From a virus, in IMG/VR virus record IMGVR_UViG_3300024346_000260, positions 1-34,667 of that record: DNA of 34,667 bases. The stretch is one strand, 5' to 3'. A model generated the notes under the pieces. It searched no databases, was not told where the DNA came from, and saw only the letters and a program-made list of their open reading frames with translations. Each line of letters opens with the position of its first letter. Within the stretch, counting starts at the first letter, position 1. The translations under genes were made by a program, and so were the position numbers. Positions 55 through 27,988 of this stretch are shown here, piece after piece.

Positions 55-1233
55 ATGAATATATACGAGTTTATACAACAAAGGTCGTCATGGGAGGATT
101 TCCTTATATTAGAGGAAGCTAAACCATTCCCAGACATTAAAACAATGCGAAGAGTCATGAAGATCATTCAAAAGAAACAATACTTAAAGTTCAACAAGGA
201 ATATCTGTTGAGCTTTGCACTGCCACAAAAAGTGTTACTCTCAGAGTTTAACACATCGAAAAAGCGCACAGTGTATGTATACCCTGAACCATACAGAACA
301 ATCTTGAAGTTAGCAGCCATGTACATGCTGAACAATTACAATGATGACTTCTGTGGTAACTCATTAGCATATACAAAAGGTAGATCAGTTAAGTCTGGTT
401 TCCGTATACTGCGAAGATGGGGATTAACACATGGTGACTTAGTTTATAAGAATGATTTTTCAGATTACTTCAACTCAATTAACCTAGACTTGTTAGAGTT
501 AGAATTAACGTCTTTCATAGAAGACGAGGACAAAGATTTAACAATCTTTATCATGAAGCTATTACGCGAACAGCGAGTACGTTACAAGAAAGCCATCATA
601 ACCGTTGAAAACAAAGGTGTAATGGCAGGTTCACCTATTGCCGGGATATTAGCCAATATCTTTATGCATAAGATAGATGAACAGATGATGAAGCACGATT
701 ATAAATATATTAGATACGCAGATGATACTCTGATCACTGGAAGAGATGCATTAGCATTCTTCAAACAGCAAGTAGCTCTGGCTGGCATTACTTTGAATCC
801 TAAGAAAATGAAAGTAATGACGTTAGAAGATGGCATCACTTTCTTAGGGTTTAAGTTTGTCAATACAACAGTAGACATTTCCGATAAAGCCTTAGCGAAG
901 ATGAAGTCCCGTTTTAAACGTAGGGCAAAGTGGTACAGTAAATGGGCACGAACTAACAATGTGAAAAGAGATGTAGCTGTAAGAGATTATATCAAGAAGA
1001 TTAACTATAAACTATTCTCAGATCAAGATGATTCAATCAATTGGTCTAGATGGTATATTCCAAACATTAATACACCTGATAGCTTACACTACTTAGATAT
1101 ATACTTTCAGACATGTATCAGATATTTATACAGTGGAACATGGCATAGAGGTAAGAAACACTACGCCTTGACATACAAAAAGATGAGAGAACTTGGCTAC
1201 AGATCTCTTGTCAATGAGTACTACAAATATTAA
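55..1233 (+). CDS. Reverse transcriptase (RNA-directed DNA polymerase), class unassigned
   Basis: This 392-aa protein carries the ordered motifs of a reverse transcriptase palm. Motif A is KNDFSDYFNSI (Asp134), motif B is GVMAGSPIAGILAN (188-201), the catalytic YADD is at 221-224 inside YIRYADDTLI, a motif D-like AGITLNPKKMKV is at 243-254 and a motif E-like ITFLGFKF is at 261-268. It should polymerise DNA on an RNA template. About 120 residues follow as a basic, aromatic thumb-like tail ending GYRSLVNEYYKY. I see no HNH endonuclease or maturase domain, so a complete mobile group II intron ORF is unlikely. The motif B lacks the SQ signature usual in diversity-generating retroelements. The start is supported by AGGAGG at 43-48. 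It lies in the same orientation as, and 118 bases upstream of, the cold-shock gene that precedes the head genes. RT identity is certain; the class (stand-alone, defence-type or other) is not. Confidence 0.95.
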   Translation: MNIYEFIQQRSSWEDFLILEEAKPFPDIKTMRRVMKIIQKKQYLKFNKEYLLSFALPQKVLLSEFNTSKKRTVYVYPEPYRTILKLAAMYMLNNYNDDFCGNSLAYTKGRSVKSGFRILRRWGLTHGDLVYKNDFSDYFNSINLDLLELELTSFIEDEDKDLTIFIMKLLREQRVRYKKAIITVENKGVMAGSPIAGILANIFMHKIDEQMMKHDYKYIRYADDTLITGRDALAFFKQQVALAGITLNPKKMKVMTLEDGITFLGFKFVNTTVDISDKALAKMKSRFKRRAKWYSKWARTNNVKRDVAVRDYIKKINYKLFSDQDDSINWSRWYIPNINTPDSLHYLDIYFQTCIRYLYSGTWHRGKKHYALTYKKMRELGYRSLVNEYYKY

Positions 1234-2067: not shown

Positions 2068-4187
2068 TTAAAAAACCAATTATAACAGAGAGCCGACTAA
2101 ATGTTGGTATCGTAGAATCATATAAGAAAGCTGATCCAGGTAGTCCTGTACTAGGGACATTTGGTGTTAAAAGCATGACAGTAGAAAACGCGGTATCACA
2201 GAACCGAACTCGCTACTCATCAGAAGTATGGAATACTCCAAACTCATTTGGTGCTGGAGGGAAGTTTATGGACGAGAGTCGTAAGCTTAAGCCTACTTCA
2301 CTATTAGGAAGTTTAGATCACCCATTAGATGACAGAGCAGAGCTTACATTAAGCGAAGCAGCAATTGCTTGGACTAATGTAACTCGTAATGAAGACGGAT
2401 CATGGGACGGGGAAGCAGATATCTTAGATACTCCTCAAGGACGTATCTGTAAAACAATGTTAGAGTATGCTAAACTAAGAGGTGGTGGAGAGCTACTAGG
2501 TGTATCTTCAAGAGCACTTGGTGATTCAGAAACTGTACAAGAAAGCTCTGGATATATTGAAGATATTATCCCAGAGAGCTATGATTTAATGTCATTTGAC
2601 TTTGTATACAATCCATCATTCACTAATAAAGCATCACTAACTGAATCAAAGAAAGCACTTAAAACTTTAACTGAATCAATTAAAGACTTAGCTAAAGAAG
2701 ATAAAGACCATGCAGAAGTGTATGAATCATTCTTAGAAAGACTTTCTAGCAAAACTAAGTTAGATACTATCACAGAGATGAAATCTAAAGTAGATGAGAT
2801 TAGAGACGCATACCTGGATGCACTTGAACAACATGAGAATGATATTGTGAATGCAATTTACAAACTAAAGAAAATGTCAGACGAAGATTTCCAAGCGAAG
2901 TATGGACAGAAATCACGTGAGAGCATTCAAAAGAAATTAGAAGCTGAACTAGAAAAAGCTAAAGAAGCTTTATATAGTACAGAAAACGGTGGGCCTTTAG
3001 AAACACCATTAGAATCAACTGAACCAGTAGTTGAAGATAATGTTGAACCAATCACAGAAGAAACAGTTGTTGAACAAACAGCAGTTGAAATCTTATTAGA
3101 AGGTAACAACGAAGGTAACAAAAGACATTGGACAAAAGCGAACATTGGAAATCTTATTAAACTAGGATTCATCAACGCCGTTTCATTAGTAAGCAGATTT
3201 GAAAAATCAGTTGAAAAGAACTTAGGCGAAAGAGGAGTTCAAGAATTAGAAAAAATGAGTGCCAAAGAAAAACTTAAAGGTGCTGCACGTTTAGTATCAG
3301 ATGAATCAATTAAGAAATATTTAGAACCTTGGGCAATTGACTTCCACGAACAAATCAGTGAAGTACAGGATCCTGAGCAACTATATAGAATGCAACCACA
3401 AAATGTTGTAGACTTTATTAGTAAGAACCAAGATAACAATTGGTGCCAGTTAAAACTAAAAGAACTGCAAGATAATGTTAATGCATATAAAGCAGTGTTA
3501 GGAGAAGAAAACATGAAAGCAGAATCAATGAACCCAGTACGTAGAGGCTACAGAGTAAATGTAACCCCTGAACAAGCTGATGGCATTAGTAAGCACTTAG
3601 ATGAGCAAGCAATCGAGTATCAAACTTCAGAGTACAATGGTAAAATACGCTTCGACTTAAGCTGTAATATGACAGAACGCATTGAACTAAATCGTTTGTT
3701 ATCTACACTAAATGAATCAGCGTTAAGAATCCAAAAGAAAAACTTATTTGAAGCTGATGAAGAAGGAAACAAAGGTAAAATTAATGAATCAGATATCATC
3801 GACGACTTCGCAGATGACGAAGATGATCCTGGATTAGATAATGATGATCCTGAAGAAGATCCTGAAGAAGAACCAGCTGAAGATGAAGATCCAGCAGCAG
3901 AAGAAGACGAAGATCTTGAAGAAGATCCTGAAGAAGAAGAACCAGCTGCAGAACCTACTCTACAAGAAGTGTATGACTTAATGCTTGAAATCAAAGAATT
4001 ATTAGTACCTGTTGAAGAAGCAGAACTTGATGATCTTGGTGACTTAGAAGATGAAGACTTATTAGATGACGACATCGACGAAGAAGAAGCTGCTCTACTT
4101 GATGATCTAGACGAAGAAGACCTAGATGAGATGGAAGACGAAGAACTTGATTATCTACTTGATTTAGAAGAATCACGTAATAAATAA
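2064..4187 (+). CDS. Prohead protease fused to scaffold/core-like domains with acidic tail
   Basis: This 707-aa protein starts with a T4 gp21-type serine protease domain (about 1-200): LLGSLDHP supplies the catalytic His86, GVSSRALG the Ser148/149, and FDFVYNPS the usual downstream signature with an Asp. A helical, charged stretch follows (200-345), then a globular-looking domain (about 350-560, HWTKANIGNLIKLG onwards), then an extremely Asp/Glu-rich tail (about 575-707). In T4 the protease (gp21) and scaffold (gp22) are separate; here they seem fused. Sites of the form [L/I]-x-E before a small residue occur at ILLE/G (Glu346) and NLFE/A (Glu563), exactly between the apparent domains, so self-processing into three parts during head maturation is plausible. 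It overlaps the preceding gene by 4 bases and the capsid gene follows. The protease call is strong; the scaffold role is inferred from position and composition. Confidence 0.85.
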   Translation: MIKKPIITESRLNVGIVESYKKADPGSPVLGTFGVKSMTVENAVSQNRTRYSSEVWNTPNSFGAGGKFMDESRKLKPTSLLGSLDHPLDDRAELTLSEAAIAWTNVTRNEDGSWDGEADILDTPQGRICKTMLEYAKLRGGGELLGVSSRALGDSETVQESSGYIEDIIPESYDLMSFDFVYNPSFTNKASLTESKKALKTLTESIKDLAKEDKDHAEVYESFLERLSSKTKLDTITEMKSKVDEIRDAYLDALEQHENDIVNAIYKLKKMSDEDFQAKYGQKSRESIQKKLEAELEKAKEALYSTENGGPLETPLESTEPVVEDNVEPITEETVVEQTAVEILLEGNNEGNKRHWTKANIGNLIKLGFINAVSLVSRFEKSVEKNLGERGVQELEKMSAKEKLKGAARLVSDESIKKYLEPWAIDFHEQISEVQDPEQLYRMQPQNVVDFISKNQDNNWCQLKLKELQDNVNAYKAVLGEENMKAESMNPVRRGYRVNVTPEQADGISKHLDEQAIEYQTSEYNGKIRFDLSCNMTERIELNRLLSTLNESALRIQKKNLFEADEEGNKGKINESDIIDDFADDEDDPGLDNDDPEEDPEEEPAEDEDPAAEEDEDLEEDPEEEEPAAEPTLQEVYDLMLEIKELLVPVEEAELDDLGDLEDEDLLDDDIDEEEAALLDDLDEEDLDEMEDEELDYLLDLEESRNK

Positions 4188-12993: not shown

Positions 12994-14475
12994 ATGTATG
13001 AACAAAGACTAACAAAACCCTGGTCTTCAAATCAAACCTTCATGGCTTTAAATGAAGGATTCAATGTATTAACTACAGTTAATGAATTGTTACTATTAGA
13101 CATGGCTGCAGTTGGACAATCATCAGGGAATACAAACCATGCTATGTTACTACAAGAGAATAATGTAGCTTACATAAAAGTACCACTTATCCCAGAGGCA
13201 ATGCAAGAATCATATTCACCAAACATTGTCAAAAGAGAAATATTTGGTCTTGTTCACCCACTAAGCTTTTATACTGGTGGAGGCGAGAAAAAGATATCTT
13301 TCTCTATAGACATACATGATGATGTAAAAGGCGTATATGGAAATGTATATGCCTTTGTAGATAAATTAAAACAAATGAGTAAACCAAAAAATAAGGTAAA
13401 TGATGTTATTCAAGAACCCTCTGTTTATTTACAAATGGGTACTCAGTTTGCTGGTAAAGGTCATATCGAAACCAGTGTACAATATAAAAAACCATTCGTT
13501 AATGGTAGATACAAAATGGCAACAATTAGTATAACCTTTACATTTCATGAGCTTGTAGATAACTCAGAGACCTATGTCTTAAATGAGTTAGACAACACTG
13601 TAATATCAGATTCATATGGTGCGGATCTTCTTGTTGATGAAAGTGCCTTACCAAATGGTGTATCTATTGCAGACTTTTATCAAGACAACATAGTAGATGA
13701 TTATTTCATTGGACAGTATGATGTTGTAAAACAAAAGCTAGCTACACTATGGCAAGTATCAGTTAGTGATAACATGATGCAATCAATGGACTATCAGTAC
13801 AGAAAAAATGATGAATACCCAATTGTTACAGCTGGTGGTGCAAAGATAGACCCAAACTCAGATCAGTTCTATGGTAACTTAGCCGATTGGTATTTAACAC
13901 CAAATACAACTGATGAAGAAAAAAAAGATTATGGATCATTCCTATGGGATATTGGGTATCACTACACAGAGTACAGTGGTCACTTCGATAATGGATTCCA
14001 AACAGACAATCTACACCCATATGTTGTGGAACTAATGATTGTACTAAGAGAATACTATCATATAATAAGTATGTTAGGTTCTATGTCATATAGAGATGCA
14101 GTAAATAATATGCGTGATTTATTAGAAACTATAGATGCATTAGTAAACAAATACCTAGTACCACCACCTAGATTTCAATGGGCACACAAAAAAGTATTTG
14201 GTAGTGATCCAACTGAAAGACAGATGAAAGGTGTTTATGACTTAAAATATGGTAGTGGTTATCCCAGCGACTACGTTCAACGAGACTACTATTATGATTT
14301 TCAGTTTATGGATAATACACAGAAAAGAATATTTGAAGATATACTAGGTGGATTTTTAATTTGTGAGATGCGCCCTGGGTATTCAGTAGAGCTATGTACA
14401 ATGAATGTAGGACTAAGAACTCTATTAGAGAAATACATAGAAAACTTCTCAGTATTTTCAGGGGTAGGTGAATAA
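12994..14475 (+). CDS. Baseplate tube cap/initiator candidate, paralogue 1
   Basis: This 493-aa protein shares a core with the next gene. The pattern IPEAMQESYSPN, then SFYTGGGEKKISFSIDIHDD, then VYLQMGTQFAGKGHIE, then KKPFVNGRYKMATISITFTF (residues about 65-190) is repeated there with substitutions. A C-terminal half (about 200-493), Tyr/Asp-rich and without recognised motifs, is specific to this copy. In T4 the tape measure gene 29 is followed by 48 and 54, a related pair that caps the baseplate hub and starts tube growth. Here the paralogous pair also directly follows the tape measure. The role is therefore inferred from synteny and paralogy, not from a recognised domain. The start has AGAGGTG upstream. 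Confidence 0.6.
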   Translation: MYEQRLTKPWSSNQTFMALNEGFNVLTTVNELLLLDMAAVGQSSGNTNHAMLLQENNVAYIKVPLIPEAMQESYSPNIVKREIFGLVHPLSFYTGGGEKKISFSIDIHDDVKGVYGNVYAFVDKLKQMSKPKNKVNDVIQEPSVYLQMGTQFAGKGHIETSVQYKKPFVNGRYKMATISITFTFHELVDNSETYVLNELDNTVISDSYGADLLVDESALPNGVSIADFYQDNIVDDYFIGQYDVVKQKLATLWQVSVSDNMMQSMDYQYRKNDEYPIVTAGGAKIDPNSDQFYGNLADWYLTPNTTDEEKKDYGSFLWDIGYHYTEYSGHFDNGFQTDNLHPYVVELMIVLREYYHIISMLGSMSYRDAVNNMRDLLETIDALVNKYLVPPPRFQWAHKKVFGSDPTERQMKGVYDLKYGSGYPSDYVQRDYYYDFQFMDNTQKRIFEDILGGFLICEMRPGYSVELCTMNVGLRTLLEKYIENFSVFSGVGE

Positions 14476-14476
14476 T

Positions 14477-15571
14477 ATGGCAGATCCGTTTCAATCAATA
14501 CTATTTACATTCATACCATATCAAACAGCAATTCTTGGTACAGAACCTGTAGAAAAATCTATCATAATAAATAAAGTTATACCAGAGGAACTAGCATACA
14601 GCTACAATCCAATGTTTAATCCACAAGCAGTATTAAACCGTATGTCACCAATCTATATGTATAAAGGTGGATCTGATATCACTTATACATTCACACTTAC
14701 ACTACATGAAGACATGGTTACAGATGGTAGTACTATATTAACAACGTCAGCATCTGATTCTCAAGTTAAATACACAAAGATAACAGACTTAATAGATGAC
14801 ATCAAATCAATGTCATACCCATATAAAGATAGCCAAGGACTACTACGTGGACAAAATGTCTACTTCCAAATAGGAGCAATAGCTGGTAGAGGTTATCTTG
14901 AAACAAAACACACTTGGAAGAAACCATTTAGAAATGGTAGATATGTAATGGTAGATATATCATTTACTATTACAGCTCAACTGATCTTCCCATCAGTTCG
15001 TCAAGCTACTGCTATCGTAGAAAATGAAGAGATTGAAACATTCTTAACATACAACGACACAGTAAGATTATCAGAATCAGAAACACAGTTAGTAGCAAAT
15101 CTAAAAAAATATACAGGGCTTGATCTAACAATATCAGACTTTATATTTAGTGACAATATTACAACTGCAGAAAAACAAAGCAACATAAACTATACTAATA
15201 AGTACTTTGATAGAAACCAGGAACGATTTGGTGATCTATTAAACATGCTTGATTCTATGGATCCAAAGTCAGAAACTGTTGACAATTTACAATCAATGTT
15301 AGAAGGTCAAGAGAATCTGTTTAACTGGAACATACTAGGTGCACCAGCACAATCAAAAGTAGTACAAGTAGCACAACTTGCTACAAAGATAGGTGCGCTA
15401 GAACAGTTCAAAGAAACATTAGTTGAATATATAACTGGTGATTACTATGACACAATATATGATGAGATGCTACCAGAGGAAAGAGATGCTCTAGTAGATG
15501 ACATTGAAGGTACAATCAATGCAATGATCGATCTATGGAAAGAGGTGTATAGTTATGCCCCAACAAAATAA
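14477..15571 (+). CDS. Baseplate tube cap/initiator candidate, paralogue 2
   Basis: The ATG at 14477 is used, with TAGGTGA upstream of it. The 364-aa product repeats the core of the preceding protein: VIPEELAYSYNP, PIYMYKGGSDITYTFTLTLHED, VYFQIGAIAGRGYLE, KKPFRNGRYVMVDISFTITA (residues about 30-175). The remaining 190 residues are helical and acidic (LLNMLDSMDPKSETVDNLQSML; EEERDALVDDIEGTINAMIDLW region). The gene starts one base after the previous stop and overlaps the hub gene by 17 bases, implying coupled translation. By analogy with T4 gp48/gp54 the pair would form successive rings between hub and tube. Confidence 0.6.
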   Translation: MADPFQSILFTFIPYQTAILGTEPVEKSIIINKVIPEELAYSYNPMFNPQAVLNRMSPIYMYKGGSDITYTFTLTLHEDMVTDGSTILTTSASDSQVKYTKITDLIDDIKSMSYPYKDSQGLLRGQNVYFQIGAIAGRGYLETKHTWKKPFRNGRYVMVDISFTITAQLIFPSVRQATAIVENEEIETFLTYNDTVRLSESETQLVANLKKYTGLDLTISDFIFSDNITTAEKQSNINYTNKYFDRNQERFGDLLNMLDSMDPKSETVDNLQSMLEGQENLFNWNILGAPAQSKVVQVAQLATKIGALEQFKETLVEYITGDYYDTIYDEMLPEERDALVDDIEGTINAMIDLWKEVYSYAPTK

Positions 15572-16820
15572 TGGGCTAAGAGTAGTTAATGTTATCCTTG
15601 ATTACATTGACAGCTCAGGTAATAAAACAGAAATTGATATAAACAAACATGGACTTGTGGACCTAAGTTTTCAAAGGTTTACAGGTACAACAGGCAGCAC
15701 ATTACCAAACATAAATCTTACTATGTTTGATGAGACAGGGTATAAACTACTATCAATGTTCCAATCAAATGGTGGTAAGCTTAGAGTTAAATATGGTTTT
15801 GAAAACGATCTATCAGGTCTGTATGAATTAACTATTGTTAAATACAAATCAACTAGAAATAATCTTGGAACCATGGCATCTATTGGTGCATTTGGTAGAC
15901 AAACAATAAGAACATATGGACCACAGGCATTTGTATTTGATGCTAGTGTACAAGAAATATTAAAGAAGATGGCACTAAGAAATAACTGGGATACTAACAA
16001 CTTTGCTAATATAAGTGTTGGTGATATTAGACTCCCTTGGCCATTACTACTAGAAGCTAACGAAACAGATATTGAGTTTATACGTAATAAGATACTACCT
16101 ATATGTAATAGGACAGTATCAAATGCATCAGCAGGGCAACTACAGTATTGGAGTGTTACACTATACACAGCAACAAGTGGGAGAGTAAACTTTAGCTTTA
16201 AGAAGTATGCTGACAGAACAGAAAGACGCAGAGTCTGGTATTACAGCTATGGTGCAGATGCAAATAATAGTGAGGTCATTACCTTAACAGACACAATTGA
16301 CTACACATTTTTACTTAATGGTCTATACTTAGAAGTACCAGCAAAACCATCTGAGATCTATGGTGGTGACGATACAACTGTAGTACAGTACTATAATAAC
16401 AAGATCATGAACAATTGGAACCTAATAGAAGCAATGTTCGAAGAGTATCACTTACCGTTACCGGCAAAGGATCAATTCGCACTTAGAGTTAAGTTCGTAC
16501 CAATGGAAGAGGCCGACGACGATATGTTAGTAGATAGAATCTATGAAGCTATTAGAGCGGCAGTTACAACAGTTAACACTATTGAAATGGAAGTGATCGG
16601 TAATAACCACATCGTTCCTACAGATATAGTTGAACTTGATGTAAGAAATAAGTCAGGATTTCAGACACTACTAAGTGGTGCTTGGAAAGTAGTACTAATT
16701 GAAGAGAAAATTGGACTACAAGGATATACTACAAAGCTAAGTTTAGTTAGAGAAGTTACACCTTATGATACAGTTCTAACAGCTACACAAAGAGATGGAG
16801 GTTATAACAATGGCCAATAA
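15555..16820 (+). CDS. Baseplate hub protein (gp27/gpD-like)
   Basis: This 421-aa protein has the layout of hub proteins that hold the central spike: an N-terminal beta-domain (VVNVILDYIDSSGNKTEIDI; GKLRVKYGFENDLSGLYELTIVKYKSTR), a middle helical segment with FVFDASVQEILKKMALRNNW and ANETDIEFIRNKILPIC (about 130-185), and a C-terminal beta-domain with IEMEVIGNNHIVPTDIVEL. The 'N-E-T-D-x-E-F-I-R' segment is common in late-control-D/gp27-type hubs. GAGGTG precedes the ATG, which lies inside the upstream gene. The next gene, an OB-fold spike candidate, overlaps its end by 11 bases, which fits a hub-spike pair. Confidence 0.7.
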   Translation: MPQQNNGLRVVNVILDYIDSSGNKTEIDINKHGLVDLSFQRFTGTTGSTLPNINLTMFDETGYKLLSMFQSNGGKLRVKYGFENDLSGLYELTIVKYKSTRNNLGTMASIGAFGRQTIRTYGPQAFVFDASVQEILKKMALRNNWDTNNFANISVGDIRLPWPLLLEANETDIEFIRNKILPICNRTVSNASAGQLQYWSVTLYTATSGRVNFSFKKYADRTERRRVWYYSYGADANNSEVITLTDTIDYTFLLNGLYLEVPAKPSEIYGGDDTTVVQYYNNKIMNNWNLIEAMFEEYHLPLPAKDQFALRVKFVPMEEADDDMLVDRIYEAIRAAVTTVNTIEMEVIGNNHIVPTDIVELDVRNKSGFQTLLSGAWKVVLIEEKIGLQGYTTKLSLVREVTPYDTVLTATQRDGGYNNGQ

Positions 16821-17226
16821 TTATAGTGATAAGCATTTGATTGCTGTCGTGGTTGAAGTTATAAAAGATATTGATGATTTACCTACACTTGAGCTAAGAG
16901 TAAGGATTCCAACTATACATGGTGTGTTACCTCGTGGTGTTGCTGACAATTTATTACCGTTAGCTAAGCCACTAATAATCCCAGGATCTACAGTAGACAC
17001 AACTAAGTTTAATACAAATATAGTTGGAGCTAAGCTATTTGTCTTACTAGAAAACGGTGATGTAAACAAACCGCTATACTTAGGTATGCCAGCAGGTGCT
17101 GATGACTTCTCACAAGGAGTTACAATACCATATGCATCGGAATTAATACCTGGATTAGTGCGTGTTAAAACAGTAACAGATGAGTTCGGAACAACTGGGT
17201 ATATCTATACATCAGAACCGGAATAA
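16810..17226 (+). CDS. Baseplate central spike, OB-fold protein (gp5 N-terminal/gpV-like)
   Basis: I place the start at ATG 16810, with GGAGG at 16797-16801. The 138-aa product has an OB-fold-like beta pattern: HLIAVVVEVIKDIDDLPTLELRVRIPTIHG, then a PLAKPLIIPG turn, then GAKLFVLLENGDVNKPLYLGMP. The latter resembles the 'G-x-x-V-x-V-x-F-E-x-G-D-x-x-x-P-V-x-x-G' signature found in gp5/gpV spike OB domains. No lysozyme domain and no C-terminal triple-helical needle are present, so this is a minimal spike base or adaptor. Any cell-wall hydrolase of the tail tip must be elsewhere. Confidence 0.7.
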   Translation: MANNYSDKHLIAVVVEVIKDIDDLPTLELRVRIPTIHGVLPRGVADNLLPLAKPLIIPGSTVDTTKFNTNIVGAKLFVLLENGDVNKPLYLGMPAGADDFSQGVTIPYASELIPGLVRVKTVTDEFGTTGYIYTSEPE

Positions 17227-17250: not shown

Positions 17251-20200
17251 ATGGCAGATTACGTGAAGTTTAAAATTGGATCAGACAATCTAACAACAGT
17301 CCATTTACAGGATCCAACCACAAAAGAATTAAAAGATCTAGACTGCTTAGTCATAGATGATTCAATTGTATTTGGTAAGATGGTAGCTCCATCTATACTA
17401 GATATTGATGCACGATCAACTGACTTAGACTTCAAACTAAAGAACAACAATGTTTGGCGTCCTAGACCAGACCAACAGATCTTTTACGAGATCGACAACG
17501 CACTACCAGCAACAGACAGTACAATAGTTAAACCAACAGAAACATCGGAATCATTACAGATTCTAGATTTAATACGAGATACACAGTACACCCTATATGC
17601 TAGAACATATTATGAAGGTGTTTATTCTGGTATATCTCAAGTAACATTCACAACAGGATCAACAGTAGAAGTAGAACTAATAGAAGTTACTATTAACTTA
17701 GTAGCAGATAGCTCTTACATAGAGTTCCAAAACCCAGTAGAGAATATCTCAGAGATAATAGAATTGCTTGGTGGAAGTACTTATGAAGAGTTCCAGAATC
17801 CTGTAGAAAATCCTACACCATCTATTACTTTAATAGGTGACAGTACATATATTAGATTTGATAACCCTGTAGAAGACATAGCTGAAACAGTTAACATTCT
17901 TGGGGCAAGTTCATACAATATATTTAACAATGTCGTATTTGTAGTAGCACCAGCTGACACTACAATTAATATGCAAGCTGCAAGTTCTTATGAACAAACA
18001 GCTAACTACATACTGACATCAATATATGAACTACTAAACATTACTGCAGCAAGCTCATATGAGCAAGCACAGAATTATATACTTACTAATCAAGCTGAGA
18101 TTATTGAACTGCTGACTGCAAGCTCTTACATAGAGTTCAAAAATCCAGTAGAGAATATCTCAGAGATATTAAGTGTTGTAGCTTCAAGCTCATATATTAA
18201 CTTCGATAACATAGTAAAAACTATCTTAGATAACATTGCACTAGAAGCTTCAAGTTCTTATGAACAAGTACAGAACTATATACTAACAAATATTAATGAA
18301 GTAATAGAAACTGTGGCTTCAAGTTCTTATGAACAAGCCCAGAACTATATCTTAGCAACTGTAGTAAGTACACTAAGCATCATAGCAACAAGTTCATACA
18401 ATAAGTTCGACAATCCAGTAGAAAACATTGCTGAAACAATAAGTATACTAGGTGCCAGTTCTTATATTAACTTTGACAATCCGATTGAGAACATTGCTGA
18501 ATCAATAGGGCTAGTAGCATCAAGCTCATATGATCAAGCGCAGAACTATATCCTAACGGCTATAACAGACTCAATATCACTTATAGCATCAAGCTCATAT
18601 GATCAAGCACAGAACTATATATTAACGGCTGTTATTGAAGCCATGAACATAGTGGCAACAAGCACATACACTAAGTTTGACAATCCTGTAGAGAACATAG
18701 TAGAAGCATTAAGTATCTTAGCTTCAAGTTCATACGAACAAGCACAGAACTATATCTTAACAGCAATAGCAGAATCAATGACAATAACTGTCTCAAGTTC
18801 TTATGATCAAGCACAGAATCATGTGCTAGCTTCAATAGCTGAATCACTAAGTATCATAGCTTCAAGCTCATACGACACATTTGATAACCCAGTTGAGGCA
18901 ATAGCAGGAGCGATCTCTATCTTAGCAGATAGTTCTTATGATCAAGCACAGAACTATATCTTAACTTCAATCACAGAAGCAATCACAACGATAGCTTCAA
19001 GTTCTTATGATCAAGCACAGAACTACTTGCATGATTTAATAGCTGAAACACTTGATATTATTCCAGCAAGTTCATATACTAACTTTGATAACCCAGTGGA
19101 AAACATTACAGAATTAATCACGCTGATCGCATCAAGTTCATATGAACAAGCACAGAATTATATACTAACATCAATAGCTGAATCAATAAGTATTCTACCA
19201 ATGAGTTCATATGACCAAGCACAGAATTATATACTAACATCAATAGCGACTGCAATCACAGCAGCAGCTTCAAGTTCATATACTAAGTTTGACAATCCAA
19301 TAGAGAATGTTGCTGGTGTAATAAACATGTTAGCTTCAAGTTCATACAGCCAAGCTCAAAACTATATCTTAACTGTAATAGCAGATTCGATGAGTATAGA
19401 GGCTAGCAGTTCTTATGAACAAGCTCAGAACTATATCTTAACAGCTATAACAGAATCAATCACAGCGTTAGCTGTGAGTTCATATATCAACTTTGATAAT
19501 CCTGTAGAGGATATCATAGAAGCAATAAGTGCTATAGCTTCAAGTTCATACAGCCAAGCACAGAACTATATACTAAATGCAGTAGCAGAATCAATAGGTT
19601 TACAAGCCTCAAGTTCATATACTTACATTCAGTATGAAGATTGGGCTCTAACAGCTATATCAGAGTCTATAGCAGCAATAGCTTCAAGTTCATACAGCCA
19701 AGCTCAAAACTATATACTAACAGCTATAACAGGCACAATAACAGCTCAGGCAGCGAGTTCATATAATAACTTTGATAATCCTGTAGAAAACATAGCAGAA
19801 GCAATCACAACGATAGCTTCAAGCTCATACAGCCAAGCACAGAACTATATATTAACTGCAATAACAGATTCGATTGCCGCAAAAGCAGCGAGTTCATATA
19901 CTTACATTCAGTATGAAGATTGGACTCTAACAGCTATAACAGATTCGATTGCCGCAAAAGCAGCGAGTTCATACAGCCAAGCTCAAAACTATATACTAAC
20001 TGCAATAACAGAAGCAATAAGTGCCATAGCTTCAAGTTCATATATCAACTTTGATAATCCTGTAGAGGATATCATAGAAGCAATCACAACGATAGCTTCA
20101 AGTTCATATACACAAGCTCAAAACTATATACTAACAGCTATAACAGATTCGATTGCCGCAATAGCCTCAAGTTCATATACTTACATTCAGTATGAAGATT

Positions 20201-23200
20201 GGACTCTAACAGCTATATCAGAATCTATAGCAGCAATAGCAGCGAGTTCATACAGCCAAGCACAGAACTACATACTAACTGCAATAGCGGATTCGATTGC
20301 CGCAAAAGCAGCGAGTTCATATAACAATTTTGATAATCCTGTAGAGGATATCATAGAAGCAATAAGTGCTATAGCTTCAAGCTCATACAGCCAAGCTCAA
20401 AACTATATACTAACAGCTATAACAGATTCGATTGCCGCAAAAGCAGCAAGTTCATATACACAAGCTCAAAACTATATACTAAATGCAATAGCAGATTCGA
20501 TTGCCGCAAAAGCTTCAAGTTCATATGAACAAGCACAGAACTACATACTAAATGCAATAACAGATTCGATTGCTGCAAAAGCCGCGAGTTCATATGTTAA
20601 CTTTGATAATCCTGTAGAAAACATAGCAGAAGCAATAAGTGCTATAGCTTCAAGTTCATATACACAAGCTCAAAACTACATATTAACTGCAATAACCGAT
20701 TCGATTGCCGCAAAAGCAGCAAGTTCATATACATACATTCAGTATGAAGATTGGACTATAACTGCAATAGCAGATTCGATTGCCGCAATAGCTTCAAGTT
20801 CATACAGCCAAGCTCAAAACTATATACTAACTGCAATAACAGATTCGATTGCCGCAAAAGCAGCGAGTTCATATGAACAAGCTCAAAGCTATGTACTAAC
20901 TGCAATAGCAGATTCGATTGCCGCAAAAGCAGCGAGTTCATATATAGAATGGGATAATCCAGTCGTACCTGTTGCAGACTCAATCGCAGCAGAGGGTGCA
21001 AGTACATACACTCATGAGATCTGGTTAAAAGACCCAGTCATAGTAGTACACGCACAAACCACTACATCGGTTACCTTTAGAATAACAAATAATAATACAG
21101 AAGATGTTACATGCTATTATGATAATGACGCCACAATCGATGCATACAATAGAACTATTACAGGTAATGGCGGTTACTACGACTACACAATTAACACAAC
21201 AGAAGCTGGCACTGTAACAGCGTATGCATACTTCACTAAAGGTGGGGTATATATAGATACGGCAGATGTAAACCAATCTGGACAAGCTTTACCATTAGTA
21301 CCATTAGTAGAGTTAGTTTCAAACTCTGGCGATACTCTGGTATACAAAGTAACAAATCAATCAAGTGCTGCTTGTATTATATATAGGGAGTTAGATGATA
21401 GTTCAGGTCCGCTAACTGGTGGTGCAATTTATCTACCAGGAGGACAAGCTACAAATGGAACAACATATCCACATATAACTATTAGTGGATTAGATCATGG
21501 AACAACCCATACAATGTATGCACAAGCTAAAATCAATGGAACTTCATTGTATTCAGCTGTAGTGCATAGAGGATACTCAGATACATTAGCAGTACCAACT
21601 CCAACTGTATCAGCATATATTACAACAGAAAACAGCATTACTTGGCGAATCACTAACAACGCCAATGTAGCAGTTACTATGTACCACGCTTTAACATCAG
21701 AAGGATTAACTCCAGGTACGGCAGTTTCACTATCAGCGAACGGTAATGGTACTTACTATGCAGATATATTAGTTTCTAGTCTAGTAGACTTCACCCAGTA
21801 TTCTAGGTACGCAATGGTTGTAGCAAATGGTACAGCAAGTATCTCAACAGGTACTATAGCATTTACAGAGTTAGCAGAACCAACAATCACACAACATTCT
21901 TCAGTTACAGATACAAATATCTATTGGAGAATTACCAATAATTCACACCTAATTTGTAAAGTATATTATGAAATGGGTGACTCAGATCCTGATCTTAACT
22001 TGTCAGCAGATCTAGCAGCAAATGGAGGTTATGTAGATTATAATCCAGCAGTAACAGACGATGAAAATTACACGTTGTATGCTAAAGCTTACAAGTACTA
22101 TGCTGGTTATCCAGGAACTAAGTACTCAACAATAGATCAAGTATCTGTACGTACACTAGTTCATAAACCAGAGATCAACTTTGTAAGTAAAACAGCTAAT
22201 AGTGTAACATTCACGGCAACAAATAACTCAGCTAGTTACGTTGATATCTATGCAGCTCATAGTGATACAACACCAAACACACTAGTAGTTAACAGTCTAG
22301 CACCAGGTGCAACTTCAGGTAACTTCACAATAAGTGGATTATCAGCTGGATCAACTTATGGGTTCTCAGCTAGAGCAAGATCAGAAGAATCACCTTATAA
22401 TTATTCAGTTAGTGATACAGAGAGTTACACAACAACAGCACAATGGACTGCTTCATTCGCTGGACTAACAGGTGCAACACCGAGTTCATATGCAGATCAG
22501 ACAATTGATGAGGGTGGAACAGCCACAAGCCCAGGAAGTCCTACTAAGGCCCCTTATTATACATTCAATAGTTGGAGCCCAGCATTTGCAGCACTATATG
22601 CAGATCAGATATATACAGCTCAATGGGATCAAGTTCAACTAGACCCACCAACTGGTGGGGTAGCGTCATTAGTTACCACTACAACAGCTAGAATAACTTT
22701 CTGGAATGATGACGACCGTGACGCAACAATTCACATAACCTTAAATGGAGTAACAAAAACTGTTGAAGTTGTGCACTGGGAATCTGGGTACTGTGACTTC
22801 ACAGGATTGTCTCCAGGTACAGAATACACAGCAACAGCATATACTTCAAAAACGGGATATGCAGATTCAACAACAGCAAACGCAACGGCATTCACTACAG
22901 ATGTAGAGGAATACACTGTATGGTGGGAGAACTGGGACGGTTCAGCATTGGAAACAGACTTAAACGTTCCTTCAGGTACAACACCAACATATAATGGATC
23001 AACCCCAACTAGAGCATCTACTAACACGCTTACTTATTCATTCACAGGGTGGTCACCAACAGTCGGTGCAATATCTGGTAACACAACATATACAGCACAG
23101 TTCTCATCTTCAACAAGATACTATAATGTTTATTGGAGAAAATACTCAACATTAGCATTGGTTGAGACAGATACAGTGCAGTATGGAGCTACAGCATATA

Positions 23201-23979
23201 AACCTACCTCAGGTGGAACAACAAATACAGCACAATATACTTATTATTGGAGCCCAACGTCTGTAGTAGTATATGCAACTCAAAACCAAACAGAGCAACG
23301 ATCACTTAATTATTACACTATCACATTCGATGCTAATGGAGGATCAGGTGGAACAGCACCTTCAGTACCTTATGGAACAGGAGCAGGTACACTAGCTTCA
23401 ACCTATGCACCTACCCCAACAAGGTCAGGGTATAGATTCGCTGGTTGGTCTCCATCACTTACAACAGTAACAGGAACTAAGACATACTCAGCAATTTGGG
23501 TATTACAAGTTACAGCAACATTCGCTGGATTAACAGGAGCTTCACCAAGTTCTTACAGTTCACAAACAGTTGATACTGGTGGAACGATTACAAGCCCAGG
23601 ATCACCAACTAAGTCTGGATACACATTCGATGGTTGGAGTCCAACATTACCAAGAACAATCACAACAAACACAACATTCACAGCACAATGGACAGCAAGT
23701 AATCCACAAACTGAAAGACCTACATTGTACTATGTTACTTACAATAGTAAACTAGGTGCACACAGTTGGCAAGTTAAAAATGAAGATGACTCATCAGCAA
23801 CATGTTGGTCTGAATTTAATGACTCAACACCAGATACAAACTCGCAAACAATCGCAGGGAATACATTAAGTACTTCAGTTAAGACAACAGGACAAGTATT
23901 CCAAGTAGGCTATGTGTATGCTAAGTGTCAAGCTTCAGGCGAAGACCTAAGTGCATATCACAGAGTTTATAGTAGTTAA
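17251..23979 (+). CDS. Giant 2242-aa repeat-shaft tail/baseplate fibre protein
   Basis: This is probably a distal fibre or adhesive baseplate appendage. An N-terminal attachment region (1-150) includes one Fn3-like module (LDFKLKNNN to QVTFTT, about 57-135). Residues 153-1249 are 48 tandem 22-25-aa units of three kinds sharing SSY and a hydrophobic second half. Residues about 1265-1735 are five Fn3-like modules marked by [I/V]TNN signatures. Then come a Listeria/Bacteroides InlB B-repeat (Flg_new)-like module (about 1735-1792), an Fn3-like module (1793-1886), four more Flg_new-like modules (about 1887-2150, with GWSP and AQW/AIW endings) and a final Fn3-like module (2152-2242). There is no signal peptide. 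It lies between the spike and small appendage genes. The ribosome site is AGGTGAAG. Fibre function is inferred from size, repeats and adhesion-type modules; no depolymerase motif is seen. Confidence 0.85.
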   Translation: MADYVKFKIGSDNLTTVHLQDPTTKELKDLDCLVIDDSIVFGKMVAPSILDIDARSTDLDFKLKNNNVWRPRPDQQIFYEIDNALPATDSTIVKPTETSESLQILDLIRDTQYTLYARTYYEGVYSGISQVTFTTGSTVEVELIEVTINLVADSSYIEFQNPVENISEIIELLGGSTYEEFQNPVENPTPSITLIGDSTYIRFDNPVEDIAETVNILGASSYNIFNNVVFVVAPADTTINMQAASSYEQTANYILTSIYELLNITAASSYEQAQNYILTNQAEIIELLTASSYIEFKNPVENISEILSVVASSSYINFDNIVKTILDNIALEASSSYEQVQNYILTNINEVIETVASSSYEQAQNYILATVVSTLSIIATSSYNKFDNPVENIAETISILGASSYINFDNPIENIAESIGLVASSSYDQAQNYILTAITDSISLIASSSYDQAQNYILTAVIEAMNIVATSTYTKFDNPVENIVEALSILASSSYEQAQNYILTAIAESMTITVSSSYDQAQNHVLASIAESLSIIASSSYDTFDNPVEAIAGAISILADSSYDQAQNYILTSITEAITTIASSSYDQAQNYLHDLIAETLDIIPASSYTNFDNPVENITELITLIASSSYEQAQNYILTSIAESISILPMSSYDQAQNYILTSIATAITAAASSSYTKFDNPIENVAGVINMLASSSYSQAQNYILTVIADSMSIEASSSYEQAQNYILTAITESITALAVSSYINFDNPVEDIIEAISAIASSSYSQAQNYILNAVAESIGLQASSSYTYIQYEDWALTAISESIAAIASSSYSQAQNYILTAITGTITAQAASSYNNFDNPVENIAEAITTIASSSYSQAQNYILTAITDSIAAKAASSYTYIQYEDWTLTAITDSIAAKAASSYSQAQNYILTAITEAISAIASSSYINFDNPVEDIIEAITTIASSSYTQAQNYILTAITDSIAAIASSSYTYIQYEDWTLTAISESIAAIAASSYSQAQNYILTAIADSIAAKAASSYNNFDNPVEDIIEAISAIASSSYSQAQNYILTAITDSIAAKAASSYTQAQNYILNAIADSIAAKASSSYEQAQNYILNAITDSIAAKAASSYVNFDNPVENIAEAISAIASSSYTQAQNYILTAITDSIAAKAASSYTYIQYEDWTITAIADSIAAIASSSYSQAQNYILTAITDSIAAKAASSYEQAQSYVLTAIADSIAAKAASSYIEWDNPVVPVADSIAAEGASTYTHEIWLKDPVIVVHAQTTTSVTFRITNNNTEDVTCYYDNDATIDAYNRTITGNGGYYDYTINTTEAGTVTAYAYFTKGGVYIDTADVNQSGQALPLVPLVELVSNSGDTLVYKVTNQSSAACIIYRELDDSSGPLTGGAIYLPGGQATNGTTYPHITISGLDHGTTHTMYAQAKINGTSLYSAVVHRGYSDTLAVPTPTVSAYITTENSITWRITNNANVAVTMYHALTSEGLTPGTAVSLSANGNGTYYADILVSSLVDFTQYSRYAMVVANGTASISTGTIAFTELAEPTITQHSSVTDTNIYWRITNNSHLICKVYYEMGDSDPDLNLSADLAANGGYVDYNPAVTDDENYTLYAKAYKYYAGYPGTKYSTIDQVSVRTLVHKPEINFVSKTANSVTFTATNNSASYVDIYAAHSDTTPNTLVVNSLAPGATSGNFTISGLSAGSTYGFSARARSEESPYNYSVSDTESYTTTAQWTASFAGLTGATPSSYADQTIDEGGTATSPGSPTKAPYYTFNSWSPAFAALYADQIYTAQWDQVQLDPPTGGVASLVTTTTARITFWNDDDRDATIHITLNGVTKTVEVVHWESGYCDFTGLSPGTEYTATAYTSKTGYADSTTANATAFTTDVEEYTVWWENWDGSALETDLNVPSGTTPTYNGSTPTRASTNTLTYSFTGWSPTVGAISGNTTYTAQFSSSTRYYNVYWRKYSTLALVETDTVQYGATAYKPTSGGTTNTAQYTYYWSPTSVVVYATQNQTEQRSLNYYTITFDANGGSGGTAPSVPYGTGAGTLASTYAPTPTRSGYRFAGWSPSLTTVTGTKTYSAIWVLQVTATFAGLTGASPSSYSSQTVDTGGTITSPGSPTKSGYTFDGWSPTLPRTITTNTTFTAQWTASNPQTERPTLYYVTYNSKLGAHSWQVKNEDDSSATCWSEFNDSTPDTNSQTIAGNTLSTSVKTTGQVFQVGYVYAKCQASGEDLSAYHRVYSS
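17707..20997 (+). repeat. Array of 48 short coding repeats with higher-order periodicity
   Basis: Splitting at each [S/A]SSY gives 48 contiguous units that add up exactly to 1097 codons. Seventeen F units have 22 aa (SSY-x-x-FDNPVE). Twenty-six Q units have 23 aa (SSY-x-QAQNYIL). Four W units have 25 aa (SSYTYIQYEDW). One is an aberrant 25-aa unit. Their order is FFFF', QQ, FF, QQ, FF, QQ, then FQQ four times, then FQWQ three times, FQQQ, FQWQQ, F. W units start TACTTACATT-like at about 19621, 19900, 20179 (279 bases apart) and 20731 (552 further). The last third is nearly identical copy to copy at DNA level: GATTCGATTGCCGC occurs ten times from 19867 on and was not found earlier. Confidence 0.95.
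21058..23979 (+). repeat. C-terminal Fn3-like and InlB-B/Flg_new-like module block
   Basis: Fn3-like modules carry SVTFRITNNN (21070), LVYKVTNQSS (21340), SITWRITNNA (21634), NIYWRITNNS (21916) and SVTFTATNNS (22200), with a degenerate ARITFWNDDD (22690) and SWQVKNEDDS at the end (23766). Flg_new-like modules end in SWSP or GWSP followed by TAQW, TAQF or SAIW, at about 22450-22628, 22909-23105, 23119-23300, 23308-23502 and 23512-23694. The first and last of these share FAGLTGA-PSSY and TSPGSPTK almost word for word, indicating duplication. Positions are approximate to within about 20 bases. Confidence 0.75.
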
Positions 23980-24270: not shown

Positions 24271-24747
24271 ATGAGCAGTATGAGAAACCCAATAGACATA
24301 GATGTCATTATTGATGGTGTGACTCATAACCTAGAGGTACTACTAGAAGCACACTTTCAAGCTTTAGTAAATGGAGACCCTGAACATACATTAGATTTGT
24401 CAGACCAAGATTTACACCATGTTATACTTACTAATCGGGATCTAAGAAATGCGGATTTAAGAAACACCAATCTGTTCAATGCAGATGTTATGAATACAGA
24501 CTTCAGGGGAGCAGACCTACGCGGAGCTAACATAGACTTCGCACAACTCAATATATCTTGTAAGAGTTTAAGCTTTAAGGTAGATGAGCGACAAGCAAAG
24601 ATGTTTCTATACATGATCATGACGATCATGGATTACAGTGACATAGATGTATCAGACTTAGTTACAGATGAGATGTACAACTACTTAGAAGATTCACATT
24701 TAGTTACAGAGCATGAGTTAGTAGTATTAGTAAAAAAGAATAGTTAA
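24271..24747 (+). CDS. Pentapeptide-repeat protein
   Basis: This 158-aa protein contains about eleven consecutive pentapeptides of the A(D/N)LxX type at residues about 40-95 (TLDLS DQDLH ... NADLR NTNLF NADVM NTDFR GADLR GANID FAQLN). That predicts one short right-handed quadrilateral beta-helix. It is flanked by a helical N-terminal part and a helical C-terminal part (ERQAKMFLYMIMTIMDY). It begins 2 bases after the previous gene's stop, with GAGGGGG as ribosome site. Most pentapeptide proteins lack a proven function; some mimic DNA. In a fibre neighbourhood the beta-helix could be structural or aid fibre folding. The repeat call is firm, the role open. Confidence 0.85.
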   Translation: MSSMRNPIDIDVIIDGVTHNLEVLLEAHFQALVNGDPEHTLDLSDQDLHHVILTNRDLRNADLRNTNLFNADVMNTDFRGADLRGANIDFAQLNISCKSLSFKVDERQAKMFLYMIMTIMDYSDIDVSDLVTDEMYNYLEDSHLVTEHELVVLVKKNS

Positions 24748-25669: not shown

Positions 25670-26059
25670 ATGATCAAAAGAAAAGATCGTGACATTCGCG
25701 GTAGATTCGATAACAGTTATGTTATAAAACATGAAGCAGTACCGTACAGTATACAAAGCAATAACAGATACAAACACTTTGACGAGATAACATTATTTGA
25801 TGGAATCACTATCAAAGCTATGCCAAGTCCACTTGACTTAGCAATTATTCCTATAGCAGGTGTAACGCCCTATACAGTACCAAAACACATGGAAAACCGT
25901 ATTGACTTAGTATCACTTAAGTTCTACGGAACATCAGACATGTATTGGGCGATCTGTTATGCAAATGGTATCGCAGATCCATTAAATCTGCCAGCTAAAA
26001 CAATTTTAGCTATCCCACACATAAATGGGCTTAGACAATTTCCTAATCCATTATCATAG
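25670..26059 (+). CDS. Baseplate wedge protein, gp53/LysM-like
   Basis: This 129-aa protein has the signature RIDLVSLKFYGTSDMYWAICYANGIADPLNL followed by LPAKTILAIPHINGL (residues about 85-122). This is the LysM-like pattern (structure 'D-x-I-x-x-K-F-Y-G-x-x-x-x-W-x-x-I-x-x-x-N-x-I-x-x-P') found in gp53-type wedge proteins and small LysM baseplate proteins of myophages. The N-terminus is basic and extended. The next gene is gp25-like and the one after is gp6/J-like, the usual company of gp53. The ribosome site is ATAGGTGAT. Confidence 0.75.
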   Translation: MIKRKDRDIRGRFDNSYVIKHEAVPYSIQSNNRYKHFDEITLFDGITIKAMPSPLDLAIIPIAGVTPYTVPKHMENRIDLVSLKFYGTSDMYWAICYANGIADPLNLPAKTILAIPHINGLRQFPNPLS

Positions 26060-26449: not shown

Positions 26450-27988
26450 ATGGCAAAAACTAGAGACGAAATAATTAATGCAGTTAAAGAACAACTGTAT
26501 TCAAAGCTGTCTTACACTAGTCAAACATATGAAGAAATATTATTAGAAACAGTCAGCTTATTTAAAGATGATGATAAACTCGCAACAGAGTGGAACAACA
26601 TTTCTGAAGCAGATATTATGTTCATCTTTATGTCACTTCTTGCGGCACATAAAGATATACTTAATTACATGTTAGACTACAGAGTGCAAGAAGCATTTAT
26701 GAGTACAGCGAAAGAAAGACAATCAGTAATCCGAGTTTGTAATTCATTCGGATACAAACCAGATAGCTATAAAGCAGCGAGAGCTGAGTTTACAGTTACA
26801 CTATCTGGGTCACAAACAATTAATCCATTTGATTCATTTGTAGATGATGATGGCATTTCATGGGTATACATAGGTGAACAAAGAACATTTAATGATGCAG
26901 AAACTATTGAATTATTCCAAGGTCTACCTATATCACTTAAATTAGTAATAGGTAACTTCTCAAACAAAGTAAAGTCACACGAGATAAGCGCACAGCCAAT
27001 AGCGATCGGTAATAACTTTAACGCAGAAGGTTGTTCTAGACTTTCTTATGGTGATGTAAACATACCAACAACACTATTTGATGAAGTAAATAATCTATAT
27101 TCATACACAGGAAGCAACCAAGATGTTTATATGCTTAATGTTAGCCCACTAGGTGTAACCTACATAAAGCTACATAAGTTCATAGATATTGCACAATATG
27201 CAGATGATGCTGAGTTTACATTCCAATACATTACTACAAGTGGAGCAGATGTAACATCAGCAGCAACATTCACATCAACACCATTTGGTGCTGGTAGTGC
27301 AACGTTAACACCTGTTGTAGACTCATTCATTCCAGGATCAAACGCACCTGGTATAGATGAATTAAAAGAAAACTTTAAAACATATTATGCATCAGCAACT
27401 TCACTAGTAACATTAGAAGATTATGAGAACTTTGTTATGAGTGTCCAAAAAACAGTACCAGAGATTACCAAGTGTGTAGTTGTGGATCAACAAGACAATT
27501 CACGTGGTGAAGCAGGTGAAGCTGGAATGAATCAATTAGATGTTGCTGTATACGCGTTAAAAGAAACTGTTGATAATAATGGTGTTGTAACATACAATGA
27601 CCCATTAACAACTGGCGTAGGCAGTGAAACTGAAGCCCTTGCTGAACTTTTAAATGCACATAATGTTACAGGTATCACAGTGTACGTAAACTCAACAGAT
27701 GGAGCTACAGCAAACGCTCTGGCTAATGTTGGTGACATGACGGTAGCACTTACAACATCAGCGATCTTATCAGATGCTGAGAAATCAGAAATACAAACAA
27801 TTATATATGACTTAATAAAATCAAAAGATATTGGTGAAAGTATAACAGAAGCAGATGTAAACACAGCACTTTCTAATTATGGTTACAACTACTTCTACAA
27901 TGGTATTGTATTAACTAATAATACAGCGCTATACTATCAGTACGTAGACATCACAACGATAGACAACATTACATTCACCCTTGTTTAG
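26450..27988 (+). CDS. Baseplate wedge protein, gp6/gpJ-like
   Basis: This 512-aa protein follows the gp25-like gene as expected for baseplate J-type proteins. The helical N-terminus (KTRDEIINAVKEQLYSKLSY; AFMSTAKERQSVIRVCNSFGYKP) precedes a beta-domain carrying SGSQTINPFDSFVDDDGISWVY, the region where J proteins have 'G-x-x-I-P-x-G-t'. A conserved helical segment SATSLVTLEDYENFVMSV (about 318-335) is a hallmark of baseplate J ('A-V-T-x-x-D-Y-E'). The C-terminus has more beta structure and a helix with SEIQTIIYDLIKS. It should form the ring of wedges around the hub. Confidence 0.8.
   Translation: MAKTRDEIINAVKEQLYSKLSYTSQTYEEILLETVSLFKDDDKLATEWNNISEADIMFIFMSLLAAHKDILNYMLDYRVQEAFMSTAKERQSVIRVCNSFGYKPDSYKAARAEFTVTLSGSQTINPFDSFVDDDGISWVYIGEQRTFNDAETIELFQGLPISLKLVIGNFSNKVKSHEISAQPIAIGNNFNAEGCSRLSYGDVNIPTTLFDEVNNLYSYTGSNQDVYMLNVSPLGVTYIKLHKFIDIAQYADDAEFTFQYITTSGADVTSAATFTSTPFGAGSATLTPVVDSFIPGSNAPGIDELKENFKTYYASATSLVTLEDYENFVMSVQKTVPEITKCVVVDQQDNSRGEAGEAGMNQLDVAVYALKETVDNNGVVTYNDPLTTGVGSETEALAELLNAHNVTGITVYVNSTDGATANALANVGDMTVALTTSAILSDAEKSEIQTIIYDLIKSKDIGESITEADVNTALSNYGYNYFYNGIVLTNNTALYYQYVDITTIDNITFTLV

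What the first reader, a model, noticed from the sequence alone, without database searches (positions are those of the whole stretch)
17707..20997. Three-flavour repeat array with changing higher-order order: FFQQ, FQQ, FQWQ
Forty-eight units of 22, 23 and 25 aa fill 1097 codons exactly. Unit types follow rules: FF-QQ blocks, then four FQQ blocks, then FQWQ blocks with an exact 279-base period. This resembles the layered growth of satellite DNA, but in a phage structural protein. The constraint that F units never vanish suggests a structural period (for example a turn or branch point every 68-93 residues) in a long shaft.
Basis: seen in the sequence. Interest (0 to 1): 0.8.

Follow-up and report, generated by a model that had tools for sequence, protein, structure and literature searches.

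The report
Growing repeat stalk in phage fibre
An uncultured T4-like phage makes a very long protein, probably a tail fibre, whose middle is 48 short repeats of three kinds in a regular but changing order, and a related phage fills the same spot with a different, separately ordered array, so the repeats look like a stalk that keeps being rebuilt.

Summary
Window 17707-20997 is 1097 codons, exactly 48 units (17x22, 26x23, 5x25 aa). Real order: FFFF.QQ | FF.QQ x2 | F.QQ x4 | F.QWQ x3 | F.QQQ | F.QWQQ | F. Corrections: the first block is FFFF (unit 4 is an atypical 25-aa unit). The 279-base period holds for three blocks only, exact in length but 81-84% in sequence. F spacing runs 22-116 aa, not 68-93. 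The array sits inside a 2242-aa protein between FN3-like domains and Listeria-Bacteroides repeats, in a variable slot of a T4-like baseplate cluster. One relative has a complete homologue with a different 20/22-aa array in its own three-unit period (192 bases); a second has a 66-base array; a third has tail-fibre genes there; a fourth has nothing. Synonymous divergence shows layered ages (5' part old, 3' part younger), but Q units are not slot-specific, so this is not a clean satellite-type higher-order repeat. Best explanation: a stalk of a baseplate-attached fibre that grows by in-frame duplication, with one probable short helix per unit. Fold unproven: both AlphaFold models were low-confidence. 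New variant of a known kind.

The parts
17251..23979 (+). Gene of the repeat protein, 2242 aa
   Evidence: Open reading frame; homologues in the same gene slot in L012/L009 and L013/L010
17251..17706 (+). N-terminal part (aa 1-152) with an FN3-like domain; the part conserved between relatives
   Evidence: 55% identity to L012, 30% to L013; alignment A2; leave-one-out HMM of the C-terminal FN3-like repeats finds it, E 1e-7
17707..20997 (+). Array of 48 units, 1097 codons
17707..18657 (+). Units 1-14: FFFF QQ FF QQ FF QQ (old layer)
   Evidence: the two FFQQ blocks are 68% identical
17905..17979 (+). Unit 4, atypical 25-aa F-like unit
18658..19473 (+). Units 15-26: four FQQ blocks, 204 b each
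   Evidence: 66-77% identical to each other
19474..20310 (+). Units 27-38: three FQWQ blocks, 279 b each
   Evidence: 81-84% identical
20311..20583 (+). Units 39-42: FQQQ block, 273 b
20584..20931 (+). Units 43-47: FQWQQ block, 348 b
20932..21009 (+). Unit 48 (F, degenerate) and a remnant ASTY start running into the next domain
20998..23976 (+). C-terminal part: about seven FN3-like domains of the same kind as the N-terminal one, interleaved with Listeria-Bacteroides (Flg_new) repeats
   Evidence: Pfam PF09479 E 4e-12; leave-one-out HMM, one domain (C6) only weak
16795..17226 (+). Small conserved gene directly upstream; left border of the variable slot
   Evidence: Conserved in L012, L013, L023, L024; no Pfam family
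25670..26059 (+). Baseplate-wedge-like gene; right border of the variable slot
   Evidence: PHROG baseplate wedge E 4e-7; 45-48% identity to L013 and L024
26074..26439 (+). gp25-like baseplate gene
   Evidence: PHROG E 1e-5; Pfam gp25 and sheath initiator below cut-off
26450..27988 (+). Baseplate-wedge-like gene
   Evidence: PHROG_219 E 4e-15

Best explanation
The array is the spacer (stalk) of a long baseplate-attached fibre or adhesin. The conserved N-terminal part anchors the protein near the baseplate. The 48 units hold the C-terminal FN3-like and Listeria-Bacteroides repeat domains, the likely host-contacting end, away from the particle. Each unit is most likely one short amphipathic helix started by the invariant S[ST]Y turn: F units carry a longer extended lead before the helix (FDNPVE cap), Q and W units a shorter one. 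The length changes by in-frame unequal exchange or slippage between units, which also spreads sequence between blocks. The 5' layers are old and held by selection on the unit head; the 3' FQWQ layers are younger. Regular order is mainly a record of block duplications. Shown: gene, array, order, age layers, selection on heads, variable slot with alternative fibre genes, a differently built ordered array in a relative. Inferred: fibre role, polarity, helical units, mechanism of growth.
For: The slot between the same two conserved neighbours holds homologues with other arrays (L012, L013), tail-fibre genes (L023: PHROG tail fiber protein, E 8e-5 and 3e-6), or nothing (L024). Baseplate, sheath, capsid and terminase genes surround it. 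The N-terminal part is conserved while arrays differ. Age layers and purifying selection on heads: Q heads pN/pS 0.19 against tails 0.73 in the old part. Exact matches of 36-53 b between non-equivalent slots in the 3' part. Hydrophobic periodicity peaks at 95-100 degrees in both array halves, and the low-confidence model puts one helix in every unit. Precedent for in-frame tandem duplication in a putative phage tail-fibre gene under host resistance: EfV12-phi1, PMC6365445.
Against: No family hit names the protein a tail fibre. No solved structure matches the array. The structure models are too weak to count (pLDDT 41 and 38), and the second one draws the first F units as strands. The relatives' arrays do not share the helical periodicity. 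No within-population length variants could be examined.
Confidence: 0.6

Rival explanations
1. The array is itself the binding surface: many copies of a weak ligand-binding unit giving avidity, with the variable unit tails (positions 13-23) tuned to the host surface.
For: Unit tails vary freely in the old part (pN/pS about 0.7) while heads are fixed; tandem BACON domains in gut phages were proposed to bind hosts (PMC6949934).
Against: Units of 22-25 aa are short for independent binding domains; the younger part homogenises the tails to nearly one sequence, SIAAKA/SIAAIA; dedicated C-terminal domains are present.
Confidence: 0.15
2. The order is purely historical: neutral block duplications in an unstructured or weakly structured linker, with no role for F, Q and W order.
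For: F spacing drifts 22-116 aa; no slot-specific Q subtypes; the relative uses a different order and different units.
Against: Heads are under strong purifying selection with synonymous sites far diverged (pS 0.6-0.85, pN/pS about 0.2), so the units themselves are constrained; this does not show that the order is.
Confidence: 0.15
3. The array is a HEAT-like alpha-solenoid, two units per helical hairpin (about 45 aa).
For: Pfam RRP12_HEAT matches above its cut-off, E 1e-13 on the array, also in sub-parts; helical periodicity.
Against: The array also draws several unrelated weak families (ClpS, PsbQ-like, SLOG), as biased repeats do; L013's array has no such match; the monomer model has no confident solenoid.
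Confidence: 0.1

Closest known systems
Tail-fibre tandem duplications of Enterococcus phage EfV12-phi1 (PMC6365445)
   Same: In-frame tandem duplication inside a 6.6-kb putative tail-fibre gene of a myovirus, upstream of a predicted carbohydrate-binding domain
   Different: One 1.8-kb unit copied during an experiment; here 66-75-base units in nested blocks, long diverged; no sequence relation tested
Tandem BACON domains in tail-associated proteins of crAss-like phages (PMC6949934)
   Same: Tail-associated tandem arrays that arose by sequential duplication in a phage
   Different: BACON is a whole carbohydrate-binding-type domain; these are 22-25-aa units with no trusted family match
T4-like long tail fibres
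   Same: Same kind of gene cluster (gp23-, gp25-, baseplate-wedge-like neighbours); long, probably fibrous protein
   Different: No tail-fibre family match; array is poor in glycine (1%), A/S/I-rich, acidic (115 D+E against 15 K+R)
Satellite-DNA higher-order repeats
   Same: Nested periods and an age gradient; L013 shows slot-specific subtypes
   Different: In the window, Q units are not more alike in the same slot, and the array is protein-coding and under selection

Membership tests
T4-like myovirus (the genome) | gp23-type major capsid, contractile sheath, T4-type baseplate genes, large terminase | tested here: met
   PHROG major head protein E 1.5e-25, sheath 4.9e-15, hub 3e-11; baseplate wedge 4e-15, terminase 5e-5; capsid tblastn to Listeria phage LIS04 and cyanophages, under 30%
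Phage tail fibre or adhesin | Sequence match to a known tail-fibre family | tested here: not met
   No tail-fibre family in PHROGs, Pfam or NCBIfam for the 2242-aa protein
Phage tail fibre or adhesin | Encoded in the slot that holds fibre genes in a relative, with other alternatives in further relatives | tested here: met
   L023 carries tail-fibre genes there; L012 and L013 have homologues with other arrays
Phage tail fibre or adhesin | Present in the virion, oligomeric, contacts the host | not testable with these tools
   Uncultured contig
HEAT-repeat alpha-solenoid | Helical hairpins of about 40-45 aa stacking into a solenoid | tested here: inconclusive
   Pfam hit above cut-off but biased composition; model pLDDT 41
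Satellite-type higher-order repeat | Units in the same slot of successive blocks much more alike than units in different slots | tested here: not met
   0.729 vs 0.722 (early Q), 0.778 vs 0.787 (late Q); F and W types do keep their slots
Listeria-Bacteroides (Flg_new, InlB B-type) repeat protein | PF09479 domains | tested here: met
   E 4e-12 in the C-terminal part, two stretches; also in L013 and in the upstream gene of L012

The most novel reading that the evidence does not exclude
In this phage lineage the stalk is rebuilt again and again with a near-constant unit length (20-25 aa) and, where long enough to see, an ordered mix of flavours, but with units that fold differently: helical in the window, strand-like in L012. 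If so, unit length and mixed order, not the sequence or even the fold, would be what is kept, and F-like units (F..NPV or F..P) would be the shared ancestral flavour.
Probability: 0.12. Interest if true: 0.7.

Novelty: new variant of a known kind. Interest (0 to 1): 0.45.

Why it matters
If the reading holds, this gene is a readable record of how a phage fibre grows: FF, FFQQ, three-unit and four-unit blocks are all still visible in one reading frame with measurable relative ages, and a relative shows the process run separately with other units. It gives a direct way to ask whether fibre length in phages is set by copy number, and whether the order of unit types matters mechanically or is only history.

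Tried and rejected
AlphaFold on units 27-38 with a self-alignment of other blocks (pLDDT 41) and on the N-terminal part plus units 1-4 (pLDDT 38): both too weak, so no fold search was run on them. One continuous coiled coil: unit lengths of 22, 23 and 25 shift a helical register by about 100 degrees at each Q unit, so considered unlikely (reasoning, not modelled). Glycine- or collagen-type fibre: rejected on composition (1% Gly). HEAT solenoid from the Pfam hit: not trusted. Array relatives: whole-protein and block searches in viral contigs, phages and plasmids found none. Host genomes: conserved upstream protein and capsid not found in genome contigs. The terminase search gave only a distant contig (L016), without tandem repeats in the part read. 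Flavour homology of L013 Y units to Q was not discriminated (z 2.3-2.7 for Q against 2.4-3.0 for F). A diversity-generating retroelement with the nearby reverse transcriptase as driver: no template/variable repeat pair seen in the window, and the enzyme matches another group.

Full report
Observation. The 1097 codons at 17707-20997 split without remainder into 48 units that each begin with x-S-[ST]-Y. There are 17 F units of 22 aa, one 25-aa F-like outlier (unit 4), 26 Q units of 23 aa and 4 W units of 25 aa: 374 + 598 + 125 = 1097. The order is FFFFQQ FFQQ FFQQ FQQ FQQ FQQ FQQ FQWQ FQWQ FQWQ FQQQ FQWQQ F. TRF recovers 279-b, 204-b and 69-b periods independently. The type order is non-random within the segments (lag 3 in units 12-27: 13/13; lag 4 in units 27-48: 14/18; shuffles about 1e-4 and 2e-4; segments chosen after the fact).

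What carries it. The gene (17251-23979, 2242 aa) has an N-terminal part with an FN3-like domain, the array, then about seven FN3-like domains of the same kind and several Listeria-Bacteroides repeats. The window is a whole virus record of 34,667 b, a T4-like myovirus fragment with gp23-like capsid, sheath, baseplate and terminase genes. It is far from any isolate: the capsid matches Listeria phage LIS04 and cyanophages below 30%.

Relatives. Capsid searches gave ten contigs: L002 is essentially the same virus but stops before the gene, eight share 49-65% of the capsid, and L019 is distant. The gene's slot lies between a small conserved gene (16795-17226) and a baseplate-wedge-like gene (25670-26059). 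In L013 (82-kb contig) it holds a complete 679-aa homologue whose array has two flavours, T = ESTTDFRTPKNLDILKTLLLTL (22 aa) and Y = DSTYKLTEHLDILKTLLLTL (20 aa), in a three-unit period (T, T, Y) of 192 bases, 85% match, followed by less regular units. There the T unit before Y reads I[AT]KDL and the T unit after Y reads ILKT in every one of the three blocks: slot-specific subtypes. In L012 the slot holds a homologue (N-terminal part 55% identical) with a 66-base array, 97% match, cut by the contig end. In L023 it holds tail-fibre genes; in L024 it is empty. So the array type is exchanged or rebuilt while the N-terminal part stays. T units of L013 and the L012 unit score better against F than against Q and W, a weak hint that F is the older flavour; the window's array also starts with F units.

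Age and selection. Synonymous difference per site falls from 0.61 (Q) and 0.76 (F) in units 1-26 to 0.42, 0.34 and 0.28 (Q, F, W) in units 27-48. The early layers are thus close to saturation and the late layers younger, as in a growing array, though none is recent. In the old layers the unit head is under strong purifying selection (Q: pN/pS 0.19) while the tail is much freer (0.73). Q units are not slot-specific, and exact matches of 36-53 b join non-equivalent slots in the late part. Type order is kept while sequence moves between slots, which fits unequal exchange or conversion better than clean block duplication. These pS values are uncorrected proportions over non-independent pairs.

Fold. 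Hydrophobic periodicity in both array halves peaks at 95-100 degrees, helix-like; L012's array peaks at 175-180 (strand-like) and L013's at both 120 and 180. The F head FDNPVE and the Q head SSYEQ look like helix caps (from general knowledge of capping motifs). AlphaFold drew one helix per unit for units 27-38 but at pLDDT 41, and strands for units 1-4 at pLDDT 38; neither is evidence. The Pfam HEAT match is formally above cut-off but sits among unrelated weak hits and is absent from L013's array.

Judgement. Best supported: a stalk or spacer in a baseplate-attached fibre, growing by in-frame repeat exchange (0.6). A published experiment shows such in-frame tandem duplication arising in a phage's putative tail-fibre gene under host resistance (PMC6365445), and tail-linked tandem arrays are known in gut phages (PMC6949934). 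What is unusual here is the small unit, the three flavours, the visible succession of block types, and the relative's separately ordered array. F as a structural clock is not supported by its spacing. Literature searches were limited to open-access papers and found no description of such an array.

Noticed in passing
55-1233 (+); homologues in L003, L004, L006, L008: A reverse transcriptase matching group UG26 of the defence-type enzymes over its full length (PADLOC RT_UG26, E 2e-94), kept at 59-65% identity in four relatives upstream of the prohead genes. A UG-type enzyme kept in a phage structural cluster is unexpected.
   Followed up: partly
L013:9397-10031: A relative's array with its own three-unit higher-order period (T, T, Y; 192 b) and slot-specific subtypes.
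   Followed up: partly
L012:8176-8976: In this relative the gene upstream of the fibre gene carries Listeria-Bacteroides repeats at its C-terminus, which in the window sit in the fibre gene: domain traffic between neighbours.
   Followed up: no
3810-4175: Acidic D/E/P-rich repeats at the C-terminus of the prohead-protease-like protein (Peptidase_S77, below cut-off).
   Followed up: no
12994-14475 and 14468-15571: Two adjacent tail genes are paralogues of each other: each also finds the other's homologue in the relatives.
   Followed up: no
24271-24747: A pentapeptide-repeat protein (PF00805) in the variable slot just after the fibre gene.
   Followed up: no
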